The notes under the pieces are model-generated. The model was not told the DNA's origin. It ran no database searches and was given only the letters and a program-made list of their open reading frames with translations. A stretch of DNA of 64,000 nucleotides from Lepidostoma basale (taxonomy: Eukaryota > Arthropoda > Insecta > Trichoptera > Lepidostomatidae). The DNA lies in NCBI GenBank assembly GCA_022606425.2, contig JAHDVF020001352.1:496001-560000 (forward strand). The letters run 5' to 3'. Shown piece after piece: positions 8,529-51,900 of the stretch. Position 1 is the first letter of the stretch; each line of letters opens with the position of its first letter. The translations under genes were made by a program, and so were the position numbers.

Positions 8529-8576
8529 TAGCGCCAACCGGTTTCAACATTTAAAGTGAGCTTCCTCAGGGCTATA
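8529..8576 (-). ncRNA. Hammerhead-ribozyme-like motif
   Basis: Reading the minus strand: GCC, CTGAGGA (plus 8563-8569), a 17-base helix-II region, GAAAC (8541-8545), CG, GTT (8536-8538), GGC. The invariant positions C3 to A9, G12 to A15.1 and U16.1-H17 are all met. A15.1-U16.1 and C-G form a two-pair helix III, and GCC:GGC starts helix I. Helix II is weak (about three pairs). Function is inferred from the pattern only. Confidence 0.5.
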
Positions 8577-8944
8577 TACAAATAGGTTGTGTATAGCCCC
8601 GAGAAAGTTTTTAATTTAATTTTAATCATAATGTTAGTAAGTTTATTTTTCCATCTCAGCCCTAATTTAATTAAATTTCCAAATTATATTATAGTTAAGA
8701 AACTCAAAATTTTATTTAACTAAAAATTAAGAGCTTTTTAAATTGTTATGTTTATTTTTCATATATCAAATATATTATATTATAATAAAATATAATGTTT
8801 GTGCGTTTACTTTTCTTTCTTAGCCTTAATTTAAATAAAATTAAAAATGTTTGATACAGTTACAAATAATCATTCTTGTTAACTTTATTCGATGGGTCTA
8901 GGAGTATCCATATTATGAAAAATAGTCCGCGAGTATCATATATT

Positions 8945-9470
8945 GTACTTAGTCTTCTTCTTCTTCTTTTAATAGATCTGAAGATCTGTGACACAGAAAT
9001 CATATACTGGCTACATGGTCCCTCCAGTATCTTCTTCTGGATCTACTCCACTGAACGATATCCTCTATTTCGCAAGTTTTTCTTATGTCTACGTTGCGGA
9101 CACGATCTCAGAGAGTTTTTCCAGTAATTGATCTTAGGACCTTCATCACCGATGTTCTTAGTAGTCCCTTGGTTCGCACAGTGTCAGCCCGCGTCTCTTC
9201 AGCGTACGTCATGATAGGTCGCACGCATGTTTTATAAATTCTGAGCTTGCTGTCGATACGCAGACCAGATTCTTCGGGCATCCTGACACGGCAGAGGCTT
9301 TGCTGAATTGTTCTCGTACATTGGTATAAAGGTCATTTTGGCTGCAGATCTCTACTTCCAAATATCTGAAACTCATTACATGCTCCACAGGTATATCATC
9401 AACAGTCAGCTTACATCTTGTAGGTTGCCTAGATATGGTGAGACTTTTTGTTTTGTTGACTGATATAGCC
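8945..9470 (-). mobile_element. LINE family D, reverse-transcriptase C-terminal fragment
   Basis: The minus strand encodes the fingers/palm-to-tail region around NKTKSLTISRQPTRCKLTVD and YLEVEICSQNDLY. After frameshifts come RIYKTCVRPIMTYAEETRAD and TLRDRVRNVDIRK, then a GAA tail at 8950-8975. It has several frame breaks. It is related to the copy at 1652-2105 but extends further upstream into the polymerase. Confidence 0.7.
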
Positions 9471-10139
9471 ATATTTAGCCTTTGTGATATTGTGTGGAAT
9501 TTGTACAACATGTATTACGAATTATTTGTATTTAATTTAAATGAAAATTTTTATTTACAGCGGAAAATGTTTATTTCAAATAAAATCATAGTAATTCATC
9601 TAATTGGCCGAAATAGTGTTGATTTTAAGCATTATATTCGAAGGTATAAATGAAAATAATAAAAAATATTTTTATCCCAGCGACCCTTCTCAAGTTCAAC
9701 GGAATGTGAATAGATAGTATGATAGGTAGGTGAATGACATAAACCCACGCAAACGAGTCTTATAGTCAGTCTTCTTTGGGATAATATGTCAAATATTTAA
9801 GGTACTGAGTTAAATACGATACGATGTGTTTTGTTTTAATAATTATTATCACAAAACAACGTATTATGCAAATACATCAATAGTGCAAAAAAATAATTTC
9901 TGTATTTTTTGTGTCTAGTACAAACACCGTTTTAATTGTTAGATTTTTAAAAAACTTTATAAAAAAAAATTTTTTTTTTTTTTTCTTTAATATATCAGTC
10001 TTAAATTGTTTCTTTCTTTTTATTCCATTTATTATTCTCCTAGATTCAACTGGTTTTGGCAGCTCACTGTTATCGACTAGAAAACACCATCATACCAATT
10101 ATTTTTATTATAATTTGGAAGAAAAAATCTGATGAAAAA

Positions 10140-10745
10140 GATGAGAGATCTGTCTGTAAATTGTCTGCTTTACGCGGACGATGCCGTTCTCGTTGCGGAT
10201 AGTTCGAACGAATTACCTTATTGGAAACAATAATTTATCAATGAAAGCGAAAACGGCCGTTCACAATGGAGTTCTGGTCCCATCACTAATGTATGAAGCG
10301 AAGTATGGAACTGGCAGAAGAAGGATGAAAGCAGAATAAATGCGGTAGAGATGAGGTCCCTAGAATGAGAATGTGGTAGAACGATATACGACAGAATCTC
10401 AAATGCTGATATAAGAAAGAAATGTAGAGCGGAATGAGGTATTATGAACAAAATTATGAAAGGATCGCTGCATTGGTTCGGACATATGGATAGAGAAAAA
10501 ATGGTCAAGAAAGTATACGTTAATGATGTAAATGGGGTACGGAGTCGAGGCAGACCGAGGAAAACATGGCATGACCAAATTAATCAAATTTTAAAGGTTG
10601 GTCATGTTAGAAGTCAGAGGAATCGATGTGTGTGTATGACTCGTTGTATGAATGTGGAGGAAGTTAGAGAGGTTTGCCAGGATAGAGTAGTGTGGCGGTC
10701 CATTCTCTCTGCCTACTCCTACGGGGAAACAGCGTGATGGTTTGT
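10140..10745 (+). mobile_element. Family A LINE, internally deleted, retains YADD
   Basis: The copy begins with MRDLSVNCLLYADDAVLVAD, the catalytic YADD box of the reverse transcriptase (about 10140-10205). It then jumps past most of the thumb to the tail: MKGSLHWFGHMDRE, GRPRKTWHDQINQILKVGHV and CMTRCMNVEEVREVCQDRVV. It ends in CGTGATGGTT. Frame breaks and the internal deletion make it a pseudogene copy. It shows that family A tails belong to a true non-LTR polymerase. Confidence 0.75.
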
Positions 10746-10972
10746 TTGAAGAAAAAATCCTTAAAACAAATAATACGTTAGTACCTACTCAAGAATCTAA
10801 TGTGAGTTGGTACTATTGTATTTTTGTATCCATAAGGTTGCCTAATTTTATCAACTTCCAACTTCTTGAACCTATCTTCAGGTTACAAGCTGACGTTTTA
10901 CTCTGAATAGGTCAAAATATATGTTTTGAAGTTTCTGTAATTTCTAGCCCGTTGATTTTGAAAATTATCAAA

Positions 10973-15859: not shown

Positions 15860-18433
15860 CAGTGTGTCGGGCCGCGTGGCATACATGATCCTCAAATTAA
15901 CGGATAGATACTCTCTAAAGATCATACAAGTATATGCACCTCAAAGTAAATATCCGGATGAGGATGTAGAGGCCTTCTATGAAGACGTTACACGGGCCCT
16001 AGATAACACCACCAAAACCCACTTCAGTGTTGTTATGGGAGATTTCGACGCCAAAATGGGAATACAGAAGTTTGATGAATCGTGGATCGGACCATACGGT
16101 ATTGGTAACAGAAATTCGAGGGGACAAATGCTAGCAAATTTCTTGGAGCTACGGAAAGAAGAAGCCCCAAGGGAGATGGATCTGGCATAGTGCTGACAAA
16201 GTTACCAAAAATGAGATCGACTTCATCATTGCGGACAAGAGACACATAGTTGAAGACGTCACGGTTATCAACAGATTTAAAACCGGAAGTGATCACCGTC
16301 TAGTAAGAGCCTGCATAAATATCAACTATAAAATCGAGAGAACTCGACTGATGAGATCAACTATCCGCCCAAATCTGCTGGAAGCCAATGTGAGCTCCGA
16401 TAATTTCCAACTAGAACTTAAAAACCAATTTGACGCGTTGGAAGATACCGAAAATGTTGACGAGGAGAACACATGTATAACAAAAATCCTATACGAAACC
16501 GGACGTAAACACTTTCCAACGAAGCGTGATGGAAAGAAGTCCAAACTTTCCAGCGAGACACTGGAACTCATGAAAAGGAGACGAGAAATAGCTGGGTCAG
16601 ATATGGCTTCAATTACTTCCCGAAACTTGAGTAAATAGATCAATTCGGCGATTCGAAGGGATCTTCGAAACGCAAACACACAAATGATCAAGGACGCAAT
16701 TGAACAGAATAGGGGGTCCAAAGTGTTTACACAAAAACTGGGCAGAAGCCAATTGACTAAACTGAAAAATGAAGACGGCAATATCGTTACCTCCAAACCA
16801 GAGTTACTCGCGGAAGTCGAAAAATACTATGGACGTCTCTACTCTAAACACGCTACAAGGCCCGTACTACATGACAAAGATGGTGATCCCAGAGCTAAAA
16901 TAACCCGCCACCATACTGACGATCTCCCAGAGATAAACATAGATGAAATTGAGATGGCCCTGAGACAGCTGAAAAACAACAAGGCACCAGGAGAAGATGG
17001 AATCACCACAGAACTTCTAAAAGCCGGAGGACTCCCAATTCTATGCGCACTACAAAAATGTTTAATTCCGTACTGCGTAAGGAATACACACCGAAAGCGT
17101 GGAGCGAAAGTATCGTGGTCCTCTTTTTCAAAAAAGGAGACAAGACTTTGTTAAAAAACTACAGGCCGATCTCACTCCTAAGCCACGTTTATAAGTTGTT
17201 CTCAAGGGTCATAACAAACCGTCTTTCCCGCAGATTTGACGATTTTCAGCCTCCGGAGCAGGCTGGGTTCAGAGCAAACTTCAGCACCATAGACCACATC
17301 CATACAGTTAGGCAGATTATCCAGAAAACAGAAGAATATAATCGACCCCTATGCCTTGCCTTTGTGGACTATGAGAAGGCCTTCGACTCTGTCGAGACCT
17401 GGGCTGTTCTGGAGTCTCTGCAGCGAAACCAGATTGATTGGAATTACGTACAGGTGTTGAAATGCCTCTATAATAACGCCACAATGTCCGTTCAAATCCA
17501 AAACCAGAAGACCAAACCGATTGAGCTGCAATGGGGAGTCAGACAAGGGGATGTGATATCTCCGAAGCTGTTCACTTGTGCTTTGGAAGATATATTTAAA
17601 ACTTTGGACTGGTCTGAACGTGGCCTCAACATAAATGGCGAATACATATCTCACCTTCGTTTTGCGGATGACATTGTTATTCTGGCGGAATCTGCTGGGC
17701 ATCTAGAAGGCATGCTAGATGAACTGAACACTGCATCCAGACGAGTGGGTCTCGGGATGAATTTGGACAAGACGAAAGTCATGTATAATGAACATATTAT
17801 CCCGGGATCAGTAACCGTCGATGGGTCGGCTCTCGAAGTGGTACAAGAATACCCATATCTTGGCCAAATCATACAATTAGGACGAAACAATTTCGAGAAA
17901 GAAGCCAACCGAAGAATTCAGTTGGGTTGGGCAGCCTTTGGGAAATTACGCCATGTTTTCACTTCCAAAATACCACAATGCCTCAAGACTAAAGTCTTCA
18001 ACCAGTGCGTTTTGCCAGTCATAACATACGGAGCCGAGACGTGGACATTGACAAAAGGTCTAGTCTACAGATTCAAGGTTGCCCAGCGCGCCATGGAAAG
18101 AGCCATGCTTGGAATAACCTTGAGGGATAGATTTAGAAACGAATTTATTCGACAACAAACCAAGGTGACTGAGGTGGCTCTACGGATAGGCGGGCTGAAG
18201 TGGCGGTGGGCTGGCCATATCTGTCGGAGAACCGACAGCCGATGGGGAAGACGGGTTCTGGAGTGGAGACCGCGTACAGGATTCCGTAGAGTTGGACGTC
18301 CCCCTGCCCGCTGGACCGACGATCTGAAGAGGATTGCTGGACATGGATGGATGGGAGCGGCAATGGATAGGGGGCGGTGGAGGGCTTTGGGAGAGGCCTA
18401 CATTCAGCAGTGGATGACAGACGGCTGATGATG
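15860..18433 (+). mobile_element. RTE-type LINE, long 5'-truncated copy with frame breaks
   Basis: The order is that of an RTE-group non-LTR element. An apurinic endonuclease fragment comes first (LKIIQVYAPQSKYPDEDVEA and FSVVMGDFDAKMG, 15864-16180). A linker follows, then the reverse transcriptase: LKNNKAPGEDGITTELLKAG, FKKGDKTLLKNYRPISLL, FVDYEKAFDSVE, QWGVRQGDVISP, LRFADDIVILAESAG. The C-terminal tail has GLKWRWAGHICRR and GRPPARWTDDLKR. The YADD box reads FADD. It is broken by a deletion and frameshift near 16140-16200, a stop near 16636 and a frameshift near 17045-17140. It starts inside the endonuclease. From 17043 to 18428 the frame is open (461 codons). The 3' end is a GAT repeat. It is not functional as it stands. 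Confidence 0.9.
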
Positions 18434-18439: not shown

Positions 18440-20384
18440 TATTTTCGCACCTCACCAATTAACAGATTTTCGGAGAAATTTTTAAATCCTTTTTATTAAC
18501 ATCTATAAATACACACATGATCATTATTTTATTTTACAACAATATTATTTTGTGACATAAGACGTTGAGTTTAAAATAAATTGCACAAATAAAAATCACA
18601 CCTTATAATTAAGAAGAATTATATCTAATGAGATTAATAAGCGCATAGCCAAATAATAAAATATGTATTTAACAAACATAAACTCATATATATTCAACAA
18701 AATCACTTAAAAATACTATGGGCATACTTTGTATAAAACTTAGAAACTTAATAATCAGTCTGGTTAGTAAAAATGAATAAATAAAAAATTATATTGGTGA
18801 TATAAATAAATAAAGGGAATTTTTAACTCTTATGTTCATTATGGAAGTCATTGCTTAAGATATTCTTCAAATCACCAAAACTAGGCAACGCAGAAGAAAA
18901 AACATTCAAATGAGATTCAATTTGTGCGTGTCAAGTCTATATATAGTTAAAAATTAAACTATTAATAAATTAAGACAACTGTTAATCGCAAAATTAATTT
19001 CCTTAATACTTATTAATTTGATTTGAGGATAGTTCAGATGACAAAAAACTAGCACGCTGAGAGGTAAAATAAAAAAACCTATTCTAAATACAGGTGTTAT
19101 CTTAATTTTTAAACACTACTCTTGTTATAATGTTTCAACCAGTAAGATTTAATTATAAAAAATAAACCTAATAATCTAAAATATTAATATTGTTAATTGA
19201 AATTTCTTTAAAAAACTTCAATGTAAATAATGACAAAATAAAAATTATTTTATTGTATATATTTAGTTTAATTCAAGGCCAGAAGATGGCTGTGAACTGC
19301 CGAAACCGGAAAAATTAAAAAAAAATAAGTGGTAAAAAACAATACATATTATAATAATTTTTCAAAAATTATTTACTGATTATTTCTCTTGAAAAGTAAA
19401 TAACTTAAACCGGAAAATATAGTATATTTTTTATAATTTTTTTTATAACAGCTATTGAAATAAATAATATTTATGTAATCAATACCCGAAAACAGGATAC
19501 ATGAATTTCTTAAAAATACAGAATGAACTATTTCAAAAAATTCTAAGCGTGTTACACAATATCAAGAAAATGATTTACCACATAATATCAGATGTCATGT
19601 ACATTTGGAATATAAAACACAGCTTATTCTGGAATGGCACTACAGCTAATGACACAATAAAATATGACTGTCATTTCAACATAAAAAAACGAGCAGAGTA
19701 TATCAGTGGTATTTCTAAGCCTCATAGATCTGTAAATTTGGTCAATTATAACCCCCACCCATATATAAATGGCTAGTAGTATTAAAAAAATACTTCAAAT
19801 AATTAATATTCTTCTGACAAAATTGTTTGCTTCCACATTGGTCAATCACATAATTATACCCCGCAGTGCTGCCGACTAGATTTACAGTCCAAAAAAATTG
19901 GTTTCGAACGGTGGCAGACTACATTTGCAGTTCGCATTTGAATGTATCTTTTTACTCTAGTTCCTTACAACTAAATTATAAGTGTAATATCATGATCAAC
20001 TGAGACTACCTATCTGAACTGTAAATGTAGCCAAGTGTAGTTCGAGACATTTTTTTTTTACTGCAAATGAAGCCAGTAGCACAATGACGGGTTAAAACAT
20101 TATGTCCATTACTGTGAACCTTGGAGTACGATAGTACTTTTTGTTTTAAATTTCAAATGCATTTTTACAAAAACATATATTTTAAACAAATCATTATCAT
20201 CGTACTCCTTACTTTAAAACACTATGATAATCGATTTATACAGTTTTATTCTATACATATCTTAAGTTTATTTTTTATATATCAAGTATTTAAATCTTTT
20301 ATACATCTGTTGGTGGCAAGCCCTGCTATATTAAACACTTTGAGATAAATATTGAAGTAAATTTAATATGTTAACTAACACAAA
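18440..20384. other. AT-rich intergenic DNA with the bili 3' flank
   Basis: No gene is recognised. The short frame at 19501-19776 has no family features. A degenerate hammerhead-like string (CAGAAGATGGC ... GCCGAAACCGG) lies near 19276-19310. On the minus strand, AATAAA (plus 20245-20250) lies about 135 bp beyond the bili stop codon and is the likely bili polyadenylation signal. Confidence 0.45.
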
Positions 20385-23300: not shown

Positions 23301-26300
23301 AGCTCTAAAAATAAATTGACAAAACGCCTCCTTTGCTATCATTCTAGGATTGCGACCCAGGATGTTCCATCTTCGATGAAAGGATGACGCTGCCGACTGC
23401 CAGTACGACACAGATATGTGTTGTCCAGGATTCACAGACATGGAATCAGCTGGGCCTTCAGGCTGATGATATGATGAAAAATAAATATTGTATTCAAATA
23501 AGCAAATGTAAATACTAACCCATAGAAAGGAAGTGGCCAGCAGAGCTCGAGGTACTTGCGCATAAGCTTCCTGGGTGGGGCAGCAGCGGGGGCACGGCGG
23601 AACTGCTCCAGCAGACGCGCGTCAGCACCCGCCTTGCTGCCACGCCCCCCGCCTGCGCCCCCTGCACCACCGCCCCAGCCTGGCCACCACCAGCGTCGCC
23701 GTAGGTGTGCCGGAAGAAACTCTTTCTGCCTCTGCCTGCAGCGATAATAAATAATGTAGTAAAACCATATAAATCTTCCTCTTCTTCTTCTTCCTCAGGC
23801 TTGATCTCTACATTGATATATATAGGCCTCTTTTAAATTATTATTATTTTTTTTTTAGATAAACTGAGGCGTTAACACTGTGGAATTCCATAATGACAAT
23901 TTTTTATGAATTAAAACTGTTTTTTCCACTTTTGAGTTTATTATTCTCGACATGTTTCGAAGGCTTACACCTTCATCATCGGTAGAATGATATAAACTAA
24001 CCAAAATTATTACAAACTAGAATTATATATAACATGTCGCACGCTTAATAGTAAACTGACCGATTATGGTTTAGGTCATAATTGAGTTTTTTTTTTTTTT
24101 TTTTTTATGTACACAACAGGTCGTTTGGACCCAATTACTGTATACAATTATTATTTTTTTAGCTATTATATTGATTCTCGTGACATGTGATAGGTAGCCA
24201 ATCTATCGCCATTTTATTGTCACTTGAATTCTACACCAGACCAAAGACAGTGTGACAATCACACTGCCATCACTGGGAATCGAACCCAGGACCTTCGGCA
24301 TGGAAGTCAGAGCTTGTAACCACTCTGCCACGAAGGTCGTCATTAGACAGAGGCTTGTGTTAACGCTATCCATCTATTTTTCACAATGTTAACGCTATCC
24401 ATTCGTACGTACGATAATCGTTCACAATGTTAACGCTATCAATTCATATGTGTTTTTCGACTGTTTTTGTTAAAACACCAACTCATGTCAGATTGAGCAA
24501 AACTTGCTTTTTTGAGTTAAGCCAGTGTTCTATTAATGGGTTTTTTAACAATAGACATATCAATGGACATATCAATTTTAAAAGGATTTTTAGATGGAAG
24601 TATTGATTTGAGGGTGTTTTATTGCTCTAAGGCTATTGATTAAGTAAGGGGACAGTTTATATTTTAAGACAAAACAAATGGACACTGACAGTGTTTTAAT
24701 TCATTAAAATTTGTTATTATTATGTTATTAATTATCTTTTCTTTCAGGCAACTTATATTATTGTTCTTTAGTAATTGTGTTAAAATGTGTAAAATACATT
24801 TTATTTGATTTTATGAAAAATGTTAGTTTTGTAAATGAGCGAGTTTTACCGGAAGAAGTGTGTGGTGTGTACAAGAGGGTCATATGGCCCTAATTGAATG
24901 CGAGCCTGCAGGGCCCCCAAGGCAACAGCACGTGCACTGCCACACGGGTAGCGGCCCTTGATCACCCGCTCACGTGCCTCTTCGTACAACAGCTCAATCA
25001 CGCGACCTTCCCTAAGAAAAATTGAACACAACGTCATTACCACATTTACTACTGTCGTAAGAAATGCAAAAAGATAGTCAGACCAAATTATCTAAATAAG
25101 AAATACATGCATTATTCTTAGAATTCAGATGGTGGCGTATTTATGCTTTTGGTATCAAATTAGATGATTAAATGGTTTTAAGTGAAGATTCCATAGATAT
25201 ACATGCTGCCGCACCCTTGAACATCCGATCGAAAAGTAGGCCTCAACGGCAAACGCACGCTCATCACTATTCCAACGCATGATGCCGACTAAACTGTGTC
25301 CGGACAAAGCTTTATAGTTTCGTTTCTCGAACGAGACCACTAACGCTCCACTACGACATCAACCGAGTGAATGGCGCGCATTTAAAAAAAGGAAAATTTG
25401 CTGCCGCATCCTGTATAAATTAACTATGCGAGTACTGCATCAAAAATTATTATCATATAAGTAATATCTCAATATCATTTAGCTGTTATAATTCATACAC
25501 TGAAGAAGGGAAGTTTGTGTCCCGAAACACGTTTGTAAAAAGTGCGAAAATGTGTTGTGATAATACAATGTTTCCGAAAAGTTATTCAAATTATTATCAT
25601 ATTTTTAAAAAATCACTTGTATATAAAATATTTCATGCATTAGAAGAAAAATTTTAAAAACTCTAAAATACATTATTGTTATTTGGAAAGAGAATTTTAA
25701 ATCTAAATATTATCCACTTTATTTATTAAATATTTTTACAAAATAAAAATATTATACACTACATGTTTCCGATGTGATCTCCTCCATCTTCAGGTGTAAA
25801 AATAATTATTAAAAGTTAGTTTAAAATTCTTATTTTACAGAACAGAAATTTTACTAACACAAAATTTAGGAAAAATCGTAATAAAAGAGATATTGGAGCT
25901 GGGGTTAAGATTCTAATGATTGGAAAGGAGTGAAAGGATACGTCTTGCTTGAAAAACTAAACTGCGTAACAACAAGTCCTTTTTACTAGCGTCCACGAGT
26001 GATCTTTAGGTCCCGTAAACCCCTGGCATGTGAACACTGACATAACCATTAATGTCATAGTGCATAGTGTGAGGGTGAACGGCGAATCTCTGGCGCCAGA
26101 TAAACAGACCCACCTAGCTAAGGGAAGGCGGCCCGTACATAAAATCCCTTCAAAGAAGGTAAAGGGATACCACTCAGATTATCTTTTTCTACAAAAATGA
26201 ATACGGTGGTGACAGTGGGACCCAAACACCTTCTTTTTTAATCTTGCCCAACTTCTTTAGGATCCTCTGAGTACTGGACCAGGATGTACTGACCTCTTCC

Positions 26301-32690: not shown

Positions 32691-33620
32691 AACGACCTTC
32701 GTGGCTTAGTGGTAGAATCTTTGATTGCCACCCCGAAGATCCCGGGTTTGATTCCCGGCGATGGCAGTGTGATTGTCACACTGTCTATGGTCTGGTGCAG
32801 AATTCTTCTTCTTCTTCTTCTTTTTGTCCTGTCACACCTCCGTGGTGCATAGGGCCTCAAGGAATCTTCTCCACCCGACTCTATCGCATGCCTGATGCTT
32901 AACATCGTCCCAAGTGAGACCTGCTGCCTTAACCTCGCCCTGCAGGGTTCTTCTCCAAGTGGCTCTAGGTCTGCCTCGCTTTCTCTTTCCCCCCATAGGG
33001 GACCAGTCTAGTGCGCCCTGAGCGATGCAGGCTGGGTTCCGTCTCAGAGTGTGACCGATCCACTGCCACTTGCGCCTAGCGACTTGTTCTCTAATTGGCT
33101 TTTTGCCTGCCATGGTCCAGAGAACGGCATTTGACACTGTTTGGGGCCAATAGATTTTGAATATTGAGCGAAGGCACCTATTTATAAACACCTGGAGTTT
33201 ACCAATAACGTCTGCGTTAGACTTCCAAGTCTCACATCCGTACAGCAGTACGCTTTTAACGTTACTTCTGAATACTTGGAGCTTGAGCTTTCTCGAAATG
33301 ATACCGGAGCGCCATACAGGGCGAAACATAGCGAAAGCTCCCCTTGCCTTGTTAAGTCTGCTGGCTACATCCTCCTCCGTACCTCCCGAGCCTGCTATCA
33401 TACTACCGAGGTAGCAGAAGCTGGTCGTGGTCACAAGGGGGACACCGTGGAGCAAGATTGGGGTGGAGTCATTTGTGGTGCAGAATTAACGTGACAATAA
33501 AAAGGCGATAGATTAGCTACCCACATGTGACGAGAATCAATATGATAGCTATACGCTTTACATTGATTTGGCACGCGCTGTAATGATGTAAAGAGCTATT
33601 CAACAAAATAATAATAAAAA
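32690..33620 (+). mobile_element. SINE interrupted by a LINE
   Basis: The SINE head (ACGACCTTCGTGGCTTAGTG with box A; CCCGGGTTTGATTCCCGGCG with box B, 32693-32765) and body run to GGTGCAGAATT at 32794-32804. After the LINE it continues from GGTGCAGAATT at 33477-33487 with AACGTGACAATAAAAAGGCG, ending in AATAATAATAA-type sequence near 33615. This is the best-preserved SINE head in the window. Confidence 0.85.
32805..33476 (-). mobile_element. LINE family C 3' end, 11-bp TSD
   Basis: The minus strand has an open frame of about 207 codons: TTTSFCYLGSMIAGSGGTEE, ARGAFAMFRPVWRSG, SVLLYGCETWKSNADVIGKL, FINRCLRSIFKIYWPQTVSN, RRKWQWIGHTLRRNP, GRPRATWRRTLQGEV, then a GAA-repeat tail. This is the C-terminal tail of an RTE-like polymerase. 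It is bounded by GGTGCAGAATT on both sides, so it inserted into the SINE. A sister copy is at 61127-61645. Confidence 0.85.
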
Positions 33621-35640: not shown

Positions 35641-36309
35641 TTGATACCCTAATATTTAAAACATAATAACATTGTTAATTTCCTCAAATCCAATATGAAG
35701 TGTTTGTTAAAAACAAAATTCTAACTTGATGACGACAACATCTTTGACAATACCTACGTATATGGAAATTGAATTTATTGAGTCGGATGTAAAAACGAAA
35801 AATCCCCAATATAAAGAACGCCGAACCGGATTTACAAAGGACATTAGCCTATACGCAAAGTCATTTCTTAGTCCTTGAAATCAAACGATAATGGTGCTTA
35901 TATTATTAATTCGGTAATCTTAGGTGCTTACGTAGGTATTCATTAAATAAAAACATTTGTTGTTATTAACTATTGCCGATTTCTTAAAAAAAAAAAAAAC
36001 GTTTTTGAGAGTGACAATGAGGAAGACGCCTTTGAAAAATAAAATCGAGTAGTCAAAAATCTTGTATTAGAATTTAATAAATATACGTTCAAATTGATTG
36101 ACGAAAGAAAACAAATTCAACGCCTTTCTAAGAACTAATGATTTTAAAAAAAATAATCCTGCATAAGATCAAGCTTGCATTGTCTGGTTTGTATCAAGTA
36201 TGCTTACTTTTACCTATTATCAACTGGTTTATTGCACTTCGCGTACTATTGTATGTGATAGCAATAAGAATTATTAATATAAACTTATAGATACAAAATA
36301 ATAAATCAC

Positions 36310-36425
36310 TTTGTATTTAACCATAGTATGGTTACTATAATTGATGCCAACAAGTTTCAGGAATATAATAACTATTTATTATATTGCTCTGATGAAGCTA
36401 GAGTCCAAACGAAACTAGTTCGGAC
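36310..36425 (+). repeat. M4 repeat with hammerhead-like core
   Basis: TTGTATTTAACCATAGTATG (36312) is the M4 end also seen at 44470-44630. At 36389-36420 it reads CTGATGA, 15 bases, GAAAC, TA, GTT. That satisfies the invariant hammerhead bases, but helices I and II are poor here. Confidence 0.45.
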
Positions 36426-36450
36426 TTTGAATTTAACCGTCTCGGATTTG

Positions 36451-38114: not shown

Positions 38115-38630
38115 TGAGTGAAAACGTTTGATTTTTAGTTTTATTGTATGTATTTTACTTGAAACACACGTTTCGCCAAGGCATTGTCGGACATCATCGG
38201 AAGAGTGGCAGCGCCAAAATTGCGCTAGGCGAGTCATGTCGCTCACAGTTCTGACGATGATGGACAAAACACCTCCTTTGCTGACGTCTTAGGACTGCGA
38301 CCTGAAACCTCAGGACGTCCCAACTTCGATGGAGGGACGACATTTGAGTGCAACATGGACGCGTGTGGCCCAGGATCGACAGACATGGAAGCAGATGGAG
38401 GAGGCCTACGTCCAGAAATGGACGGCTTCAGGCTGACAATTATGATGATGATGATGAAGGCATAATCAAATGTTTGATAATACGTTAGCAGGACGAAACA
38501 TGTCATTCCCTTAAAAGAAAACATACGTTTTCATTCGTATTAATAATTTAACATGAAGCTTCGTCAAGTTTACAAAAACAAATTAAATGAAGCTCCAAAG
38601 GAGGGAGCGAAACCGGTTAAAAATAAAATG
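38115..38630. repeat. M3-like element split by an RTE tail, plus a second hammerhead-like repeat
   Basis: ACACACGTTTCGCCAAGGCA and GAAACATGTCATTCCCTTAA are M3 halves. Between them, 38200-38450 is a plus-strand RTE tail (RQTWKQMEEAYVQKWTASG, then GAT repeats). At 38593-38622 a related motif reads AATGAA, GCTCC-loop-GGAGC, GAAAC, CG, GTT, with a strong helix II but a damaged CTGANGA box. Confidence 0.45.
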
Positions 38631-38639
38631 ATGTAAAAA

Positions 38640-39920
38640 CAAAATAAAATAAAATGTTTTAAATAATTTTTAATGATGCTACATCAAAAAAAATTATAGT
38701 TAAAATGTCAGCTAGCGTTTTCTTTGGCGCGTCTTCCAAGAAAAATAACTACTTTGAATCCACGCGGCTAGGATCAGGGTCAAACGTTAAAATAACAAAT
38801 TATAAAAGTGACCTAATGACCACGTGGCTTCGAAAATAAACAGAGGAGTAGTCTCTCAAAAGGAATGACTCATCGTTGAACTCTTCGAAATATTTAAAAA
38901 TATACATATCCCAGGACTGCATACTTAAGCTAGACGTGTTGCACTCTTAAATGACAAATCTAATAATATTGAAAAATTCTACATTTTTTATATGCTATGC
39001 CGATTCTTCCAAATTTTATTTGAAACAAACGATTCCGATATCTAAAAATGAACACAAAAATTTATTTCATTCACACATTCATTCATTCACAAGAATTGCA
39101 TACTTAAGAAATGCAATTCTTGCTGAAAATTAAAAAAAAATCAGTTATAACCTTTATCAATTATCAAGCTCATAAGTTGTATGCCATTTAATGAAATCGA
39201 TGTTTTTCACCTAAACGCTTATGATTTTAAAAAAATAGTTGCAGCAACTTTTCGGAGTGTATAGTGCTATAATGTAGTATCCCTTTATTTGTATTATTAT
39301 TATAATTTTTTTGTTAATTTTTATACTATTACCTTAGTTTTATTTTGATTTTAGTTTAGTTAAATCTCGTTTCATAAGTCTACAATGTTAAATCTGTTCA
39401 TTCATTTTTTTGTGGTAACATGTAATTGGCCTTATTTAAGTACTTTTTGTGTATTTTTACATACGAGTATACATACACTTATTCGCTGTTTGTTACCCTA
39501 AAATAAAAATAAAATGAATTAAAATAAAATAAATAAATAAATTATCATTCTGAACTGTTCATTTTTATAATCAAATAAAAAAATTATAAAGGACTCGACG
39601 AGACCCATTTTAATGGAGTGGGCCATTGAATACGATACATTTAAAAATACAATGATATTATATAACGTTATCACAACGAATTTGCGAGCACACGAGAAAG
39701 GCCGGAAGCCACAGTCGTTTTTAACGAGAAACGAACTGCATTTTACAGATAAAGCTATAATACGTATATAGGACACCATAGGATGTGGACGGTAAGAGGG
39801 GATTCACCATAACTGCTATCGCGACCACATTTCCTTCACAGGCCTAATCTCAATCTTCCACACTCCCCAAAACATTTCCGCGAATCTGAATTCTCCTGAA
39901 CTCTAAAATTGACACCGCAC
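38640..39920. other. AT-rich stretch, nothing recognised
   Basis: No open frame with family features. ATTCATTCACACATTCATTC-type simple repeats occur near 39068-39092. The frame at 39519-39779 (minus) shows no recognisable domain. Confidence 0.4.
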
Positions 39921-40479: not shown

Positions 40480-40640
40480 GTTTTTTTTTTAACAATTTAA
40501 ATTTTTGTTTATTTCGACAACTGCCGGTTTCGCCATGTTGGCTGGCATCGACAGATTGGTTCAGTCCAGTCAGTCGGTGCCAGCCAGCCTGGCGAAATCG
40601 GTCGCTGTTGAAATTAAGACATAAGTGGATGTAGTTATTT
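40480..40640 (-). repeat. Palindromic repeat with degenerate hammerhead-like core
   Basis: The minus strand reads TCGAT, GCCAGCCAACATGGC (a hairpin), GAAAC, CGGC. An inverse half lies at 40570-40620 (GCCAGCCTGGCGAAATCGGT). The cleavage-site U is missing, so activity is not expected. Confidence 0.35.
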
Positions 40641-41310: not shown

Positions 41311-41319
41311 AAACGTCTA

Positions 41320-41475
41320 ACGTTTCTAGAAGTTTTATTATATTTCATTGAAATGACACGTTTCACCTTGCTAACGCATTATCAAATATTTGATAACACC
41401 GTAGCGAAGCGAAACATGCCATTTCAACTAAATATAATAAAACTTTTAGAAAACACAAGTTTTCAACCATATTAA
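41320..41475. repeat. M3 palindromic element
   Basis: CTAGAAGTTTTATTATATTT ... ACACGTTTCACCTTGCTAAC, then the inverse GTAGCGAAGCGAAACATGCC ... ATATAATAAAACTTTTAGAA. About 150 bp, nearly perfectly foldback. Confidence 0.65.
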
Positions 41476-44469: not shown

Positions 44470-44630
44470 ACATTAAACACGGGTATGGTTATTATAATTG
44501 ATGCCAACTAGTTTCGCTTGGACCCAAACTTCATCAGGAATGATGCTTGGGTCCAAGCGAAACTAGTTGGTATCAGTTATAATAACCATACCACGGTTAA
44601 ATACAAAGTGTTTTATTTACATAATACATT
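44470..44630. repeat. M4 palindromic element
   Basis: ATGGTTATTATAATTGATGC ... GTTTCGCTTGGACCCAAACT is followed by its inverse TGCTTGGGTCCAAGCGAAAC ... TATAATAACCATACCACGGT and TAAATACAAAGTGTTTTA. It carries the hammerhead-like core of 44506-44537 on the minus strand. Confidence 0.6.
44506..44537 (-). ncRNA. Hammerhead-ribozyme-like motif, best helix II
   Basis: On the minus strand: CTGATGA (plus 44531-44537), unpaired A, GTTTGG-GT-CCAAGC (six pairs, one of them G-U; plus 44516-44529), GAAAC (44511-44515), TA, GTT (44506-44508). The catalytic core is exact, including CTGATGA. Helix I outside the core is short (one or two pairs). Activity would need testing, perhaps as a dimer. Confidence 0.5.
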
Positions 44631-44794: not shown

Positions 44795-44985
44795 GATTAA
44801 TTTAAAGCTGTCGAATTCCGTAATGACGATTTATTATGAATTACTGAGGTTTCCACATTCCAATTTTCCACTATCCTCGGGAGAACGATTTAAACTCTAA
44901 AGCTTTATATAGTTCTCCAGATGAAGGTGTAAAACCTTCGAAACATGTCGAGAAAAATAAACTTAAAAGTGGAAAAATGTTTTTT
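44795..44985 (+). repeat. M5 element
   Basis: CTGTCGAATTCCGTAATGAC at the left, then AACATGTCGAGAAAAATAAA and CTTAAAAGTGGAAAAATG on the right. Same order as 23860-24045 (reversed) and 34817-35040. Confidence 0.6.
44913..44954 (+). ncRNA. Hammerhead-ribozyme-like motif with 5-bp helix I
   Basis: TTCTC (44913-44917), CAGATGA, AGG-loop-CCT, TC, GAAAC (44940-44944), AT, GTC (44947-44949), GAGAA (44950-44954). TTCTC and GAGAA are exactly complementary and flank the core at C3 and C17. U4 is changed to A, which should abolish activity in this copy. Sister M5 copies retain TGATGA. Confidence 0.5.
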
Positions 44986-45039: not shown

Positions 45040-45150
45040 CTAACAATAGCTATTAGATCTGTATGCCAGAAGATCCAATTACAAGCGCCCTTGAGGTGAG
45101 CTATTCACGAAAACGGCGCTGTACAAATTAGCCTAATTATTATTATTACT
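45040..45150 (+). mobile_element. L2/CR1-type LINE 3' UTR fragment
   Basis: CAAGCGCCCTTGAGGTGAGC, then AAAACGGCGCTGTACAAATT and an ATT-rich end, match the 3' UTR of the L2-type copy at 12978-13180. No coding sequence is left. Confidence 0.6.
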
Positions 45151-45199
45151 AAATGAATTTATTTTACAATTTAGAGGAACGGCTTTTTTACTTAACCTT

Positions 45200-45480
45200 C
45201 GAATTATTTAATTGAATCTTCTCTCCTAGTCATTTCCCATTTGTTTAGGGCAGTTCTCCTAATAGAACAGCGCGAGACTTTTCGGTCTTGGGCCAACCCG
45301 CTGTCGATCTGCGGCAATTTCACGCCGTTTTTGACTGTTGACAGCCAAGTTGCCGGAGCCCCGTACTCTCCTCCCCGGGTCAAGTTGTAGGTTTTTGGAC
45401 GATGTGATCTTCGCCCTTTCTACATACATGACCATATCATCGTAGACGACCCTCTCTCAGCTTTTCCGTCACAGGGGCTA
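45200..45480. mobile_element. Reversed LINE-like 3' fragment
   Basis: TCTTCTCTCCTAGTCATTTC and CAGTTCTCCTAATAGAACAG resemble 22885-22950. The remainder (CGTTTTTGACTGTTGACAGC, CTCTCTCAGCTTTTCCGTCA) is repeat-like but unclassified. Confidence 0.35.
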
Positions 45481-45544
45481 CTCAAAAGCTTCCTCGGATG
45501 AACTCATTTCTTACCACAATATATCTAGCATGGTCATTCTAGAT

Positions 45545-45874
45545 CCTAGGTTTTCAAAGTGGGCGATAACGCCCCCTTGTGGGCGTTTGAGACTTTCAGG
45601 GGGGCAGTAGAAGACCCAGAAAAAATAGAGAGCGTGGACAGATAAAAAAATATAGTCTAAAAAGACAAAAAAAAACACGCTAATTATTTCTTCCTTTTAT
45701 TCGTTCGGTATTCTACCATATGTCGTTTTCAGATACATAAAAGATTTAATAATATTTTAAAATTCAACTATGTGTTTCTGAATATATTTGGAATAACTTT
45801 TATGGGAGGGGGGCGTTGAACGTTTATTTTTCTTGTAAAGGGGGCGGTGGCCCAGAAAAGATTGGAAACCTATG
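45545..45874. mobile_element. hAT-type MITE with 8-bp TSD, 77 bp before the GPCR start
   Basis: Starts CCTAGGTTTTCAAAG and ends TTGGAAACCTATG. TTCTAGAT flanks it at 45537-45544 and 45875-45882. It is 330 bp and in the opposite orientation to 14134-14477. The reading frame entering the GPCR is open back into this element (from 45816), but a splice acceptor lies between them, so it is probably intronic. Confidence 0.85.
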
Positions 45875-45950
45875 TTCTAGATCAATCAATGATTCTATAA
45901 TATTTTTTTTTAGAGTATTTTTTTATTACAGACTTGCAACTTCTGTAAAA

Positions 45951-48900
45951 ATGGCGACAACAGAACAATCTCATGTGTTCACGACGGATGGTTATGAAGG
46001 ATTCCCTTCTACCATTGCCTACGAGCTGAGCTCGGTCGGCGGCGGTCTGGTGATGTCCTCCGCGAATGAGACGCACTCTATGAAGTCGCAGTTGGCGGCC
46101 TACGACATACTCATCCCCCTGCTGGGCACACTCATCATCATCACCAACGGAGCTGTCGTGATATCCAGCGGCCTGCTGCTGAAGAAAGGTGAAAATCGAC
46201 GCCATTTAGAATAAATTAAATTAATTTAGAGAATTTTCGGGCAACATTGGACATCACTTACACATTTTTTTTTAATATTTGTTTCTGGAAAACTTTCTTC
46301 TTCTTAATTCAGGCTATGTGACCTGTTTTTCAAGAGGGATTGGCCACCTGCGAAGTCGATTCCCAGCTGTCAATCTATGTTTTTGGTGGTCTGCCCGGGG
46401 GTTGTCTATCTTGAGGTTGGACGTGCAATACAATGTGAGGGAGTCTGCATAAATCTATTCTTCTCACATAATGAAATCTTCGACTTCACATATATTCCTT
46501 GTAATTAACCGATAAACAATAAATGAGAAATTGAAGTGCAACCGACGTGATATTCCTAGATAAAATAACATTTCGAGTCTATTGGAAAACCTCTATTCGT
46601 CGGATTTTTTACGTTAATTGTGTATTATAATATAAATGATTCGCCTTTACGTGTGTCATTTTCAATAATTATCACCTTTGAAAAAAAGAGATTTCTTCAA
46701 ACTGAAATAAATAATAAAAATAATGTGCCCGAGTGTTGTCCAAAGTTAACCGAAATCTCTCCAACTCACGTGCATAAACGTGCATTTGTGTTTTTTTTTT
46801 ATATATAGGGGGGGCATTTTATGTTACAGTTTTTTTTATATAATATACTCGTACTGTTGTTACATGTCAATAGAAAATTAATTTAAAAAATGCGTTTCAT
46901 TTAAGTTATTTAAAAAAAATCATCTGAAACGTAAAATGCTTCTGTTAATAAGAAAGTGATAAATTCCATATTGATAGGGAATTATCTCTCTTAAAATATA
47001 ATAAAACTTTCAGAATTTGTAAATTTTCTTAAATAACTTACATGGAACAATAAATACTGAGTAAAACTGAACCAAAACTAATTTCGTTCTGGACGTTATA
47101 GATAAATCAGCGAACGAAATAATAAAACCAGCGGGAGAGAGGAGAATCAGGCGGGAGTTCTGAGTATTGAAGGCCTAATTAAGATGAGGAATTCTGGACT
47201 AAAGATATTGTTCAAACGATTACAGGCCAACAGCCCCGGTGTACGTACCTGTTATTAGGAAATGTGGCCATGGCTGATCTGATAACTGGAATAGCGGTCA
47301 TCGTCGGCCAAGCATATCCAAAGACCAACAGGACCCACTACTCTTGCGCCTTTCAGCTGGGTAAGAATTATATTTTCAATCAACAAGTTCAACCCTCATG
47401 TATGGAAGTGAAGCTTGGAGCTGGCAAAAGAAGGATGAAAGCAGGATAAACGCCGTAGAAATGAGATCACTCAGAAGAATGTGAGGAAAAACATTGTATG
47501 ATAGAATACCGAACGATGAAATGTAAGGCAGATGACTGCATCATGGATACAATTAAAAAAGGATCCCTGAGATGGTTTGGACATATAGAACGAATGGATG
47601 AGAGTAGAATGGTTAAAAAGTTGTACACAAGCAGCGTGAGTGGAAAAAGAAGCCGAGGACGACCGAGGAAAACATAGCATGACCAAATTAATAAATTACT
47701 AAAAGGCGATCACATTCGAAGTCGGAATAATCGACGTGCGTGCATGGTACGACGTATGAATGTAGAGGAAACCCGAGAGGTATGCCAGGACAGAGCATTG
47801 TGGCGATCCATCCTATCTGCCTACCCCTCCGGAGAAATGGCGTGATGGTTAGTAAGTTAGTTAGTTATCAACAAGTTAACCTACCCACAGTAATGATGTT
47901 ATACCTATTTGTGATAGCAAACAAAACGAATCCGGTATCCTGGTTGACCCAAACAAATGAGTTATAATTATCAATGTGTGATGTTCTTATGTTAACGATC
48001 TTGTTCGGGTGTATACAAGTGATCGTACTGCAAATCGTGGACTCAATATTAAAACTAGGTAACTCGAAATTTAGAGTTTTGAGTTATTAATAACAAAAAA
48101 CTAAATAACTAACCATCACGCCATTTCCCCGGAGGGGTAGGCAGAGAGGATGGACCGCCACAATGGCCTGTCCTGGCATACCTCTCGGGATTCCTCTACA
48201 TTCATACATCGTACCACGCACGCACGTCGATTATTCCGACTTCGAATGTGGCCGCCTTTTAGTAATTGATTAATTTGGTCATGCCATGTTTTCCTAGGTC
48301 GTCCTCGGCTTCTTTTCCCACTCACGCTGCTTGTGTACAACTTTTTAACCACTCTACTCTCATCCATTCGTTCCATATGTCCAAACCATTTCAGGGATCC
48401 TTTTTTAATTTTATTCATGATGCAGTCATCTGCCTTACATTTCTTTCATATTTCATCGTTCGGTAATCTATCATACAATGTTTTCCCACACATTCTTCTT
48501 AATGATTTCATTTCTACGGCGTTTATCCTGCTTTCATCCTTCTTTTGCCAGCTCCAAGCTCCACTTCCATACATGAGGGTTGGCACTAGAACTCCATTGT
48601 GTACTGCCATCTTAACAACAACGGATGGCTAATCGAAAATAGTTTTTGAATAGGTATATTTTTTTTTTTAAAAAAGACTAACCTCAAAGATTTAAATCAA
48701 TGATATTAGAATTTATTTTACAATCTTCAATATGAGCAGAAAATAGCTCATTATTATGAAGAAGGAATCTGGTCGTGTCCAGGCTCGAACCCAAGTCCCC
48801 TAGATTAGGAGTCAAGCGTTCTATCCCCTAGACCACCACCCAATTTTAACCATAACCTTTAATGTCCATTTACACTGGACAGTCACCAGCCGATACCGAC

Positions 48901-51900
48901 ACGTCACGATAAAAATAGCCTTGAATATCACTGACTCGTTATCTCAAATGCTATAATAAAATCGCCGTCGGGGGTTGCCGAAGAAAGCACCTACCTACAT
49001 AAAATTGACACTTAATAAAAATGATCAATATTTTTCAGGGTGTGTTTCCTACAGTATAAAATTCTTTTTTATAGAAAACCATTTTTACTACCATTTAAAT
49101 TCGCAGTGAAGAAGGCGATTATCCTGGAATTTAAATATAATATGAACGGAATCGGCATTAATTAAAAATAACAAGACACCATCAAAACCAACAAAATCTT
49201 TATTTGCTCAACGCAAACGCGTGACGTGTCGGTATCGGCTGATGACGGTCCAGTGTAAATGGACCTTTAGAATGCCAAATAACTATGTATCGTTGATTGC
49301 AAAACTATCGAGAAAGGTTAACTTTGATCGCATTTGCCTAAAATATGACTCATATATGCTAGAATAAAAATATTTTTGTAAGATAATAATGTATCTCACT
49401 CGTGCACTTGTATGTAAAAATAAGAGAAAAAGAAATAGCACGCATCCGGTAGACAAATCACGCGGTTTCTCTAACATGCGCCAACATTTTTTTTTGTTTT
49501 TTTAGTTTAATTACGGATAGTAGACTCGATACTATTATTACCATAAACTTATTCAGCATTACTATTATTTAAAAAAGATCCTAAACGTAGAAACATAAGA
49601 ATGCTAAAAGTAGATATCTGAAGTTATCGACATCTTTGAGTTTCACTCAAAGAAACTCTCCTATACAAGAAATAGATAACTTCACTAATCTAATTAACAC
49701 GAACGAAAACGTACGTTTTCTAGAAGTTATATTTTATTTTATGGGACTGACATGTTTCCCCTTGCTAATGCATTATTAAACAATTAAAACTGCTTTAGCA
49801 AGGCAAGTTCCAATGTTATCATTCCAGTAAAATAAAATAAAACTTCTAAAAAACAAACGTTATCATTCGTTTTACTCGTAATTATTTAAAATGTAGTTTT
49901 ACATAATTGTTTAAAAAACAATAAATATTTAATAGTCTATTTAAATTAGGTACTCATGGTAATGTTTTGACCACAAAACTAAGAAAGTCGTACTCTCAAT
50001 AAAGATAATTTTGAGTTACCTAGTTGTAGTATTGAGCCCATAAAAATTATATGATTTCATATAATTGATAAAAAAAAATCACTTTGTATTATGACACAAC
50101 ATCAGCAAAAAAGGTGATAAGATTATTCTCAGAGAAGCTAACCGGTTTTGATTGTAATCGAACATCATCATAGTTTAAAATATAATGGTAAAGATGGATC
50201 TTCAAATATTTAGTTTTTATTGCCCCAATGAAGAGATGAAGTTTCTTCCCGAGTGAAACCAATTGGTTTTTCTGAATATTAAAATGTTATATTAAAAAGT
50301 TGTTTTTTAAATTTTATTTGATAACACGTTTCAGAGGTTATCATCGGTGATGAAAGTATAAAGCCTTCGAAATATGACGAGAAAAATAAACTCTTACGCG
50401 AAAAAACAGTGTTTTAATTAATTGTGAAATTCCGCAGTGTTTACACAAAATTGATCTAATAGACTATGCAAAATTCAATTGATTTTGTGAAAGATTTTCA
50501 GCTAAGAAAGATTCCCTTCTTCTCCGGTCTCAATTTAATGATTGGTCTGCTGCAAGGCGACGCATCTCCTCTTCCACTCCGCTCGGTCCTCGGCAACTCT
50601 CTTCAACTCTTCGCATAAGAGGTGGAGCCCATATCTCGGCAAATCTGGTCTGGGGCGAGATCGTCCTCTGCCAATCGATCCCTCGACCATTCCATCCAAC
50701 ACATTATGCAGGAAACATTCGTGTCGCAACACAAGACCAATCTATCTTGCGCGCCTCTCCGCTATGGTGTTCAACACGTGCCTACTCTCTTCAGCTTTGC
50801 TGAGAATGTGGTCCCTCCATGAAACATGGGCCCTATGCATCCCTTATGGCATCCTTTCTACGACTATTGAATTTGCATACTTTATAACACATTTTTATCA
50901 ATGTTTTTGGTCTATCAAGTCTGATTGTAGGGTTTCTCAAGATATATATTATTTACCCATTAATGTTCTTAAATATTTTATTACATATTCCTCCTGTATT
51001 CGCCATTACTTTCTGTTGTGGATTCAAATTTGAATATATATTTTTAAAACATTGTATTTTCACAAAAAAATTTTTTTGCCCTATTCACAAATATGTTTCG
51101 AACCACAGACGCCCTTCCTCGATGTAGAAATTTGAACACTGAGGAAGTTAAAACTTCTACACTGAGGAAAAGCGTCTGTGATCCGAAACATATTTGTGAA
51201 AAGTGCAAAAATAATTTTTAAAATACAATGTTTTAAACAATATTTTATATTTTAAAAAAAATTTACTAACCATCGAACCGTCTCCCCGAAGGGGTAGGCT
51301 CATCATACTGCATTTATTCTACTTTCATCCTTATTTTGCCAGTTCCATGCTTCGCTTCCATACATAAGGGTCAGTAGAAGAACACCATTGTGCACTGCCA
51401 TTCTAGCTTTTGTGGATAGGTTTTTGTTTGCGATGACAACTGTAAGTGCACCATTCACTTTGTTACCTGCCCCAACCCTTTTTTCAATGTCCCTCTCCAC
51501 TCGCCCATCTCTTTAATGTTTGTATAAATGCTTATATATTATTTTTTTAGGAATGATAGTGTCCAGCACGATCGCATCCATTTATAGCGTTGGGCTAATT
51601 GCTGTCGATCGATTCCTGTACATTTTATACGGATTAAAGTACCATCGCTGGGTTTATCCCACGAGAGCACGATGCATGATCGCCGCCACGTGGCTGCTGG
51701 GTAAGAAAACATTTAAAAGAATTACTTATCATATACGAGTCATATCTAGAGAGTAAGTGTACTGAGTCTATCACGACCGGATGAATTTTATTTTCGACAT
51801 GTTGGCTACACTTCCGTGTAGCCTAACCCTTCCCCTCCGCAACGAGACCGGTTCGAGGTCAGTACGTTGAGAAGTGTCGACGCGACAACACGTTTCGTGA

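What the first reader, a model, noticed from the sequence alone, without database searches (positions are those of the whole stretch)
8529..51198. Dispersed population of hammerhead-ribozyme-like repeats of several families
At least six loci show CTGANGA, a variable helix-II region, GAAAC, two bases and G/A-T-H: 8529-8576(-), 25496-25537(+), 25755-25798(-), 36389-36420(+), 44506-44537(-) and 51158-51198(+). The invariant hammerhead bases and a two-pair helix III are kept while the surrounding sequences differ. In four loci, complementary arms abut C3 and H17 exactly. Degenerate relatives lie near 19276, 23950, 34960, 38593, 40530, 44913 and 50340. Hammerheads with very short helix III are known from Penelope-like elements and retrozymes, which act as dimers. 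The consistent extra A after CTGANGA is unusual. Many of these loci are followed by AATAAA-like and AATACAATGTTT-like ends, suggesting one superfamily of small retroelements in this insect.
Basis: partly seen in the sequence, partly recalled or inferred. Interest (0 to 1): 0.88.

Follow-up and report, generated by a model that had tools for sequence, protein, structure and literature searches.

The report
Mirror-image ribozyme retrotransposon ends across genome
The scattered hammerhead-ribozyme-like repeats are real and look like the chopped-off ends of several Penelope-like jumping genes, often inserted as two mirror-image copies at once, which hints at how these elements copy themselves and shows natural changes inside a famous catalytic RNA core.

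Summary
In detail: all six named loci carry CTGANGA-helix II-GAAAC-NN-RTH. The own genome (769 Mb) has 21,393 matches to a strict pattern against 11 for its reversed control. Helices I and II covary, with one unpaired base after A9; the two-base helix III 'loop' is usually self-complementary, so ACNNGT is a palindrome suited to a dimeric ribozyme. These are the minimal hammerheads known from pseudo-LTRs of Penelope-like elements (PLEs): not a separate superfamily, but 5'-truncated ends of several PLE families. RT + GIY-YIG frames with a ribozyme after the stop were found for some families; F1-F5 are tied to PLEs by frame-start tails and layout only. An inverted mate lies upstream in 20 of 30 sampled loci. 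Of 35 head-to-head twins scored, 28 carry the 40-60 base 'tail' on exactly one arm, 0 on both, 7 on neither; 13-17 bp target duplications flank 8 of 15 tested. So an insertion is most likely two cDNAs, one per target strand, from two start sites. Two families have changed cores: PLE-D (1,378 matches) U3/A8 instead of the C3-G8 pair, PLE-A (5,597) U6 instead of A6. Cleavage is untested. Kind known; core variants and the one-tail count may be new.

The parts
8526..8579 (-). PLE hammerhead, F1-like (CTGAGGAAGCTCACTTTAAATGTTGAAACCGGTT)
   Evidence: (26.8 bits)
23939..23992 (-). degenerate PLE hammerhead (core CCGATGA or ATGATGA)
   Evidence: 26.4 bits
25490..25543 (+). PLE hammerhead, F5
   Evidence: 49.0 bits; a model seed
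25541..25593 (+).
   Evidence: F5 hit 25490-25593
25750..25803 (-). PLE hammerhead, type with T after A9 (as in L050, where it follows a GIY-YIG frame)
   Evidence: 29.6 bits
36299..36358 (-). left arm of a head-to-head F2 twin
36377..36444 (+). right arm of the F2 twin with hammerhead 36379-36430
   Evidence: (21.9 bits)
38581..38689 (+). degenerate F1-type copy
   Evidence: (18.7 bits, E 0.014)
40527..40554 (-). PLE-A type hammerhead with U6 (CTGTCGATGCCAG...GGCGAAAC); the 40500-40623 hairpin that Rfam scores as mir-1294 looks by eye like a PLE-A head-to-head twin
44474..44547 (-). left arm of a tight F2 twin, hammerhead 44496-44547
   Evidence: (31.7 bits)
44540..44625 (+). right arm of the same F2 twin, homology starting inside the ribozyme core
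   Evidence: (19.8 bits)
44908..44959 (+). degenerate PLE hammerhead (core CAGATGA)
   Evidence: 29.2 bits
51019..51154 (-). left arm of an F5 twin, hammerhead 51080-51132
   Evidence: (30.0 bits)
51152..51257 (+). right arm of the F5 twin, hammerhead 51152-51204
   Evidence: (40.9 bits; a model seed)

Best explanation
The repeats are minimal type I hammerhead motifs in the pseudo-LTRs of several Penelope-like element (PLE) families, left across the genome as short, 5'-truncated 3' ends of PLE copies. Shown: motif, helix covariation, linkage to RT + GIY-YIG frames in some families, twin anatomy, target duplications. Inferred: the RNA spans frame end, ribozyme, AATAAAG box and next frame start. 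The GIY-YIG enzyme makes a staggered break and both 3' ends prime reverse transcription, one from a start site inside the next frame (arm with tail), the other from a site 40-60 bases earlier (arm without tail). Both cDNAs run 5' through an uncleaved ribozyme, often stop soon, and are joined head to head, giving a mirror-image insert with target duplication. The ribozyme most likely works as a dimer, because its two-base helix III cannot close by itself but ACNNGT is a palindrome that two copies can share; its job may be to cut multimeric read-through RNA or to pair two RNAs.
For: 21,393 strict matches against 11 for the control. Covariation: 85.1% of cells paired against 60.9% shuffled, score 0.575 against 0.162 (0/500), slid versions at most 0.163 (22 of the 30 loci plus 6 others; left out L003, L004, L014, L015, L017, L021, L024, L030). 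Helix II 0.889 paired in the register with one unpaired base against 0.42, 0.51, 0.25 in others; loop self-complementary in 60 of 74 unique motifs (86 of 100 rows), shuffled mean 35.7, max 50; helix I mean 2.6 contiguous pairs against 1.07 over 45 motifs. PLE frames: RVT_1 and GIY-YIG in P0001; other families at 38-46% identity with frames up to 873 aa, some with a stop; ribozyme after the frame in L050, L059, L065, L066, L068, L069. Some F3/F4 tails encode MNPQHKV/MANIEE-like peptides, the start region of the PLE-B frame. Neighbours within 2 kb in three genome lists of 100 rows each: -+ 30, +- 1, -- 3, ++ 3 (the last two counted by eye). Tail: 28 one, 0 two, 7 none of 35 twins at one score cut (P = 6e-5 for no double given the margins). 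Target duplications: 13-15 bp in 4 of 11, 13-17 bp in 4 of 4 (anchors set by eye). Published PLE protein PAc in vitro starts RT internally at two adjacent sites, extends both strands, and its insertion does not need ribozyme cleavage (PMC11167929, main-text section read).
Against: No cleavage, RNA-seq or circular-RNA data. Rfam hammerhead models do not match. One covariation measure does not beat shuffles (pairs with a change on both sides, 8 against 7.3, 170/500), and shuffles ignore relatedness. The core, the C before GAAAC and most of helix III were fixed by the search pattern, so their constancy is no evidence. 13 of 45 motifs have no contiguous helix I pair. RNA cofolding is mixed: intermolecular helix III fully only for PLE-B and mostly for the T-type among 11 sequences. 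7 of 35 twins show no tail at the cut (L076 and one window twin lie just below it) and F5 twins were not scored. Many twins are near-symmetric palindromes through the centre, which self-priming would also give. 7 of 11 twins show no clear target duplication. In the window, 36389 and 44506 also have short inverted matches downstream. Frames for F1-F5 themselves were not recovered. The AC-rich CACAAA box is absent from PLE-A and PLE-D tails.
Confidence: 0.85

Rival explanations
1. Twins arise by self-priming: one cDNA folds back and copies itself, giving a palindrome (proposed for rotifer PLEs, on an antisense template).
For: Several twins are palindromic through the centre with high identity, e.g. 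L065 98% over 212 bp, L011 90% over 292 columns; proposal in PMC3846280 (passage).
Against: Asymmetric twins: L059, L066, L069 have one arm with most of a frame and share only 280-608 bp at over 99% identity with the other arm; no twin with two tails; target duplications at both outer ends.
Confidence: 0.25
2. A separate superfamily of small non-autonomous ribozyme elements (retrozymes) spreading as circular RNA.
For: High copy number, short size, hammerhead content; retrozyme-like repeats are reported in insects (PMC7229834, passage).
Against: Same-strand neighbours are 6 of 37 against 30 divergent; copies are variably 5'-truncated and some carry PLE frame starts; minimal helix III, not the canonical retrozyme form.
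Confidence: 0.05
3. The ribozyme is a relic: only structure for RT initiation or binding is kept, not catalysis.
For: PLE-A (5,597 matches; A6 in 0 of 100 listed, by eye) and PLE-D (1,378; G8 in 0 of 100 listed) have changed cores; no pile-up of copy 5' ends at the cleavage site (most loci were picked for having the ribozyme, so this is weak); PAc insertion does not need cleavage (PMC11167929).
Against: Full core plus covarying helices in families whose proteins share only about 40%; in PLE-D the two changes are the ones that can keep the C3-G8 pair as U3-A8.
Confidence: 0.25
4. Chance matches in AT-rich DNA.
For: Six loci were picked by eye.
Against: Genome count against control, and covariation.
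Confidence: 0.01

Closest known systems
Minimal type I hammerheads of Penelope-like elements (Cervera & de la Pena 2014; Lunse, Weinberg & Breaker 2017; recalled, and seen only in reference lists and as described in passages of PMC7761336 and PMC6155905)
   Same: CUGANGA/GAAA core, helix I and II, minimal helix III, location in PLE pseudo-LTRs, thousands of dispersed copies, dimer action proposed.
   Different: One unpaired base (A or T) between A9 and helix II; families with U3/A8 and U6 cores; copies explained as twin-insert ends. Whether those papers list such features I could not check.
PAc, Poseidon PLE of Anolis carolinensis (PMC11167929, main-text section read)
   Same: Ribozyme at the pseudo-LTR/frame-start junction, internal RT start just inside the frame, two adjacent start sites that bound the 'tail', both target strands extended.
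   Different: Other host and families; in these genomic twins no insert uses the distal start on both arms, whereas in vitro no difference in start site between strands was seen. PAc's ribozyme overlaps its frame start; here it lies before it.
Adineta vaga Penelope elements (PMC3846280, passages)
   Same: Inverted pseudo-LTR, optional 31-bp tail on one of the inverted pseudo-LTRs, short target duplications, palindromic head-to-head junctions.
   Different: Far fewer copies; tail called optional there, here counted in 35 twins; the word hammerhead does not occur in that paper's main text.
Animal retrozymes (PMC7229834, passages)
   Same: Type I hammerheads, many copies, short units.
   Different: Retrozymes are tandem 170-400 nt units with canonical hammerheads; these are mostly inverted, truncated PLE ends.

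Membership tests
PLE-type minimal hammerhead | CUGANGA ... GAAA core | tested here: met
   F1-F5, PLE-B, PLE-C, T-type (used as search pattern). Not met in PLE-A (U6) and PLE-D (U3, A8).
PLE-type minimal hammerhead | Helices I and II flanking the core, kept by covariation | tested here: met
PLE-type minimal hammerhead | Very short helix III, palindrome allowing a dimer | tested here: met
   loop self-complementary 86 of 100 rows, 60 of 74 unique; the flanking A-U and C-G are largely fixed by the pattern
PLE-type minimal hammerhead | Lies in PLE pseudo-LTR | tested here: met
   for PLE-A, B, C, D and the L050 family; F1-F5 by tails and layout only
PLE-type minimal hammerhead | Self-cleavage, faster as dimer | not testable with these tools
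   needs in vitro transcription
Rfam hammerhead families | Score above the curated cut-off | tested here: not met
   window, all families; genome, RF00008 only, without a positive control
Penelope-like element | RT plus C-terminal GIY-YIG in one frame | tested here: met
   P0001 RVT_1 1.3e-13, GIY-YIG 4.9e-5; 1,329 of 7,994 scored public proteins related
Penelope-like element | Tandem or partial tandem units, inverted pseudo-LTR, tail, target duplication | tested here: met
   PLE-D units mostly 2,954 bp apart in order (-)(-)(+)(+) on C308 and C502
Retrozyme | Tandem units with canonical type I hammerhead, circular RNA | tested here: not met
   neighbours mostly inverted; helix III minimal; circular RNA not testable

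The most novel reading that the evidence does not exclude
Each PLE insertion is built from two RNAs held together by the palindromic helix III of their hammerheads, much as a retroviral dimer-initiation loop pairs two genomes (comparison recalled). The dimeric particle carries one RT complex set at the distal start site and one at the proximal site and primes one on each strand of a staggered break, which fixes the one-tail rule. Pairing, not cutting, would then be the ancestral job of PLE hammerheads, so cores may drift (U6 in PLE-A, U3-A8 in PLE-D) while the palindrome stays (ACCGGT, ACTAGT, ACATGT, ACAAATTTGT).
Probability: 0.18. Interest if true: 0.85.

Novelty: new variant of a known kind. 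Interest (0 to 1): 0.55.

Why it matters
[quoted passage not shown] A genome with tens of thousands of matches in several families, with natural core variants and countable twin inserts, gives direct tests: does a U3-A8 core cleave, does U6 matter, do fresh inserts use two RNAs, and why is no twin seen with two tails. It also offers an explanation of why minimal hammerheads appear as 'dispersed motifs' in animal genomes.

Tried and rejected
Rfam search for hammerheads: nothing. PLE frames next to the first F1-F5 loci fetched at length (L031-L036): only other, LINE-like frames, judged by eye. Pile-up of copy 5' ends at the ribozyme cleavage site: 12 of 104 profile hits start more than 5 bases 3' of C3, from +6 to +63, two of them (one place seen twice) at +34; no support for cleaved templates, but weak, because most loci were fetched for having the ribozyme, overlapping loci count more than once and local ends are fuzzy. 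RNA cofold as a test of dimers: mixed. PDB sequence search with P0001: no match. Paper searches for natural C3-G8 variants: 'hammerhead'+'C3-G8'+'base pair' 0 papers; 'hammerhead ribozyme', 'catalytic core', 'natural', 'G8C', 'C3G', at least four, 5 papers, only PAc on the subject by title. So 'may be new' for U3-A8 rests on these two searches of open-licence PMC papers; for the one-tail count and the passages read. The key 2014 and 2017 papers and a 2021 PLE paper were not held. An alternative reading of PLE-D, N7 lost and G8 kept, fits the TTGAGAA copies but not the TTGAAAA ones.

F5 twins (L026, L065, window 51019/51159, L014) were not in the tail count, because I had no F5 tail reference.


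Full report
Check of the observation. The six loci are as described. The window count exceeds resampled sequence (6 against 0.09), and the genome count is decisive: 21,393 strict matches against 11 for the backwards pattern. The first 100 listed rows fall into groups by helix II and helix III: F1 GCTCC..GGGAGC/CCGGTT, F2 GCTTG..CAAGC/CTAGTT, F3 GGAC..GTCC/CATGTC, F4 GGGC..GTCC/CATGTT, F5 GGGA..TCCC/CATGTT or C (grouping by eye).

Structure. Contiguous helix II pairs start after exactly one unpaired base: 83 of 100 rows have three or more. Among 74 unique motifs the four-pair score is 0.889 in that register and 0.25-0.51 in others; shuffled arms give 0.633, max 0.74 of 2,000. In a 28-row alignment (22 of the 30 fetched loci, 4 other loci, 2 window motifs) the covariation score, the percentage paired and two other measures exceed all 500 shuffles and all slid versions do worse; the number of pairs with a change on both sides, 8 of 11, does not (170/500). 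The core, the C before GAAAC and most of helix III were fixed by the search pattern, so only the free positions count as evidence. With two bases between its two pairs, helix III cannot close a hairpin, but those two bases are self-complementary in 86 of 100 rows (CG, TA or AT by family), so the hexamer is a palindrome. That is what a dimeric hammerhead needs (newt and amphibian dimers: PMC6155905 and PMC7229834, passages; the PLE dimers of Lunse et al. recalled).

What carries it. A genome search for GIY-YIG gave 62 matches. Two of the 20 loci read (L037, L039) look like bacterial UvrC (by eye); several others lie in Penelope-type frames. L057/L059 hold a 758-aa open frame with RVT_1 and GIY-YIG. 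A protein search scored 59 of 3,717 candidates, all matching, in several PLE families at 38-100% identity. Ribozymes follow the frame in PLE-A (L059, CTGTCGA), PLE-B (L065, L066), PLE-C (L068, L069) and in the L050 family; in PLE-D the ribozyme lies between two tandem frames (L067). Further on comes a box like AATAAAG in most families, then the start of the next frame: PLE-A MNFHQEIS, PLE-B MNPQHKVMANIEE, PLE-D MEFY. Some F3/F4 tails encode the PLE-B-like start (read by eye). F1/F2 tails (ATGTCACACCACAAATT...) and F5 (ATGTTTTCAAAAAG...) fit the same layout, but their frames were not recovered. So the small repeats are best read as PLE 3' ends, cut short at the 5' side.

Twins. An inverted copy lies upstream in 20 of 30 fetched loci (several loci are two views of one place); none of the 30 shows one downstream among the up to three matches printed per locus, apart from stretches matching themselves. 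In the window 44506 and 51162 are twins by this test, and 36389 and 44506 also have short inverted matches downstream. With family profiles, 45 neighbouring pairs within 1.2 kb are -+ 34, -- 6, +- 5; same family 31, 5, 1 (overlapping loci counted more than once). By profiles the window holds twins at 36299/36377, 44474/44540 and 51019/51159. In the three genome lists of 100 rows, neighbours within 2 kb are -+ 9, 8, 13; +- 1, 0, 0; -- 2, 0, 1; ++ 1, 0, 2 (the last two by eye). Long copies are twins too: L059, L066, L069, and PLE-D on C308 and C502 stands as (-)(-)(+)(+).

Tail count. Of 20 distinct twins of F1-F4 in hand, 14 have the tail on exactly one arm, 0 on both, 6 on neither (score cut 30; ten duplicate loci dropped, F5 not scored). 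Fifteen more, scored with the same cut against tails of their own families: three twins with large frames (L059, L066, L069), eight chosen from listed -+ neighbours (L071-L078) and four further PLE-D twins (L079-L086) give 14 one, 0 both, 1 neither (L076, where a damaged tail may be present, score 25). The tail is on the long arm in L059 and L069 and on the short arm in L066. Total 28 one, 0 two, 7 none of 35; given the margins the chance of no double is 6e-5. Direct repeats of 13-15 bp at the outer ends occur in 4 of 11 twins against at most 9 in 110 mismatched pairs, three more could not be anchored; in four PLE-D twins they are 13, 13, 15 and 17 bp against at most 6 in 12 mismatched pairs. 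So such a twin is one insertion event. In vitro the Anolis PLE protein extends both strands and uses two adjacent internal start sites that bound the tail (PMC11167929). The genome adds that both arms never start at the distal site in the twins scored. Tails of PLE-B, PLE-C, F3 and F4 hold CACAAAGT(N)ATGG and F1 and F2 CCACAAA, an AC-rich box like that of the Anolis element; PLE-A and PLE-D tails lack it.

Changed cores. PLE-D: 1,378 matches of a pattern leaving core positions free; in the 100 listed, position 8 is A in 98, C in 1, T in 1, G in none, while N7 is G 63 / A 37. Position 3 is T in 25 of 26 readings, the exception lying at a twin junction (L071 minus arm); 22 of 22 readings with CAG in the upstream arm are U3-A8 (L015/L016 are one place). 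Helix I abuts U3 and position 17 in the fresh copies (TCAGT/ACTGA), and helix III is the palindrome ACAAATTTGT; position 17 is A in most, G in one L067 copy. C3 and G8 are the pair whose swapped double mutant partly restores cleavage in the Anolis element (PMC11167929), so U3-A8 reads as a natural compensatory change. PLE-A: 5,597 matches; in 100 listed position 6 is T 98, C 2, A 0 (by eye), with helix I, helix II and ACCGG kept; 23 of 27 fetched readings are CTGTCGA. Twin arms of PLE-A are over 99% identical in L059, which suggests recent activity with this core.

Mechanism and limits. No excess of 5' ends at the cleavage site was seen, in line with the Anolis result that insertion does not need cleavage, but the sample favours copies with the ribozyme. 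What the ribozyme does remains open: cutting multimeric transcripts, or pairing RNAs. Cleavage, dimerisation and RNA state were not testable here.

Noticed in passing
window 52800-53684: Exon-like frame with a 7tm_1 receptor domain (Pfam E 2e-14); a frame at 45753-46214 ends in a membrane-like stretch but its tested part (45909-46212) had no Pfam match; it may be a first exon. The window would then lie partly in a rhodopsin-type GPCR gene with long introns full of retroelements.
   Followed up: partly
L037 (C102), L039 (C729): Two contigs of the assembly carry bacterial-looking UvrC frames with bacterial-looking neighbours (by eye): symbiont or contamination.
   Followed up: no
window 16135-18428 and 6039-6456: Large LINE-type reverse transcriptase frame (16953-18425, RVT_1 E 1e-32) and a fragment of a similar frame elsewhere in the window.
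   Followed up: no
window 58597-58738 and 41316-41460: Long inverted repeats that Rfam scores below its cut-offs as miRNA precursors on both strands; probably inverted-repeat transposons, not miRNAs.
   Followed up: no
window 4125-4196 (-), 32695-32766 (+), 24265-24337 (-): tRNA-like matches, two above and one below the Rfam cut-off, possibly heads of SINEs.
   Followed up: no
G000 C308:2096145-2107985 and C502:3014-14849: Arrays of four PLE-D units in order (-)(-)(+)(+), mostly 2,954 bp apart and with the same 1,476-bp central gap; the two contigs may be two versions of one locus.
   Followed up: partly
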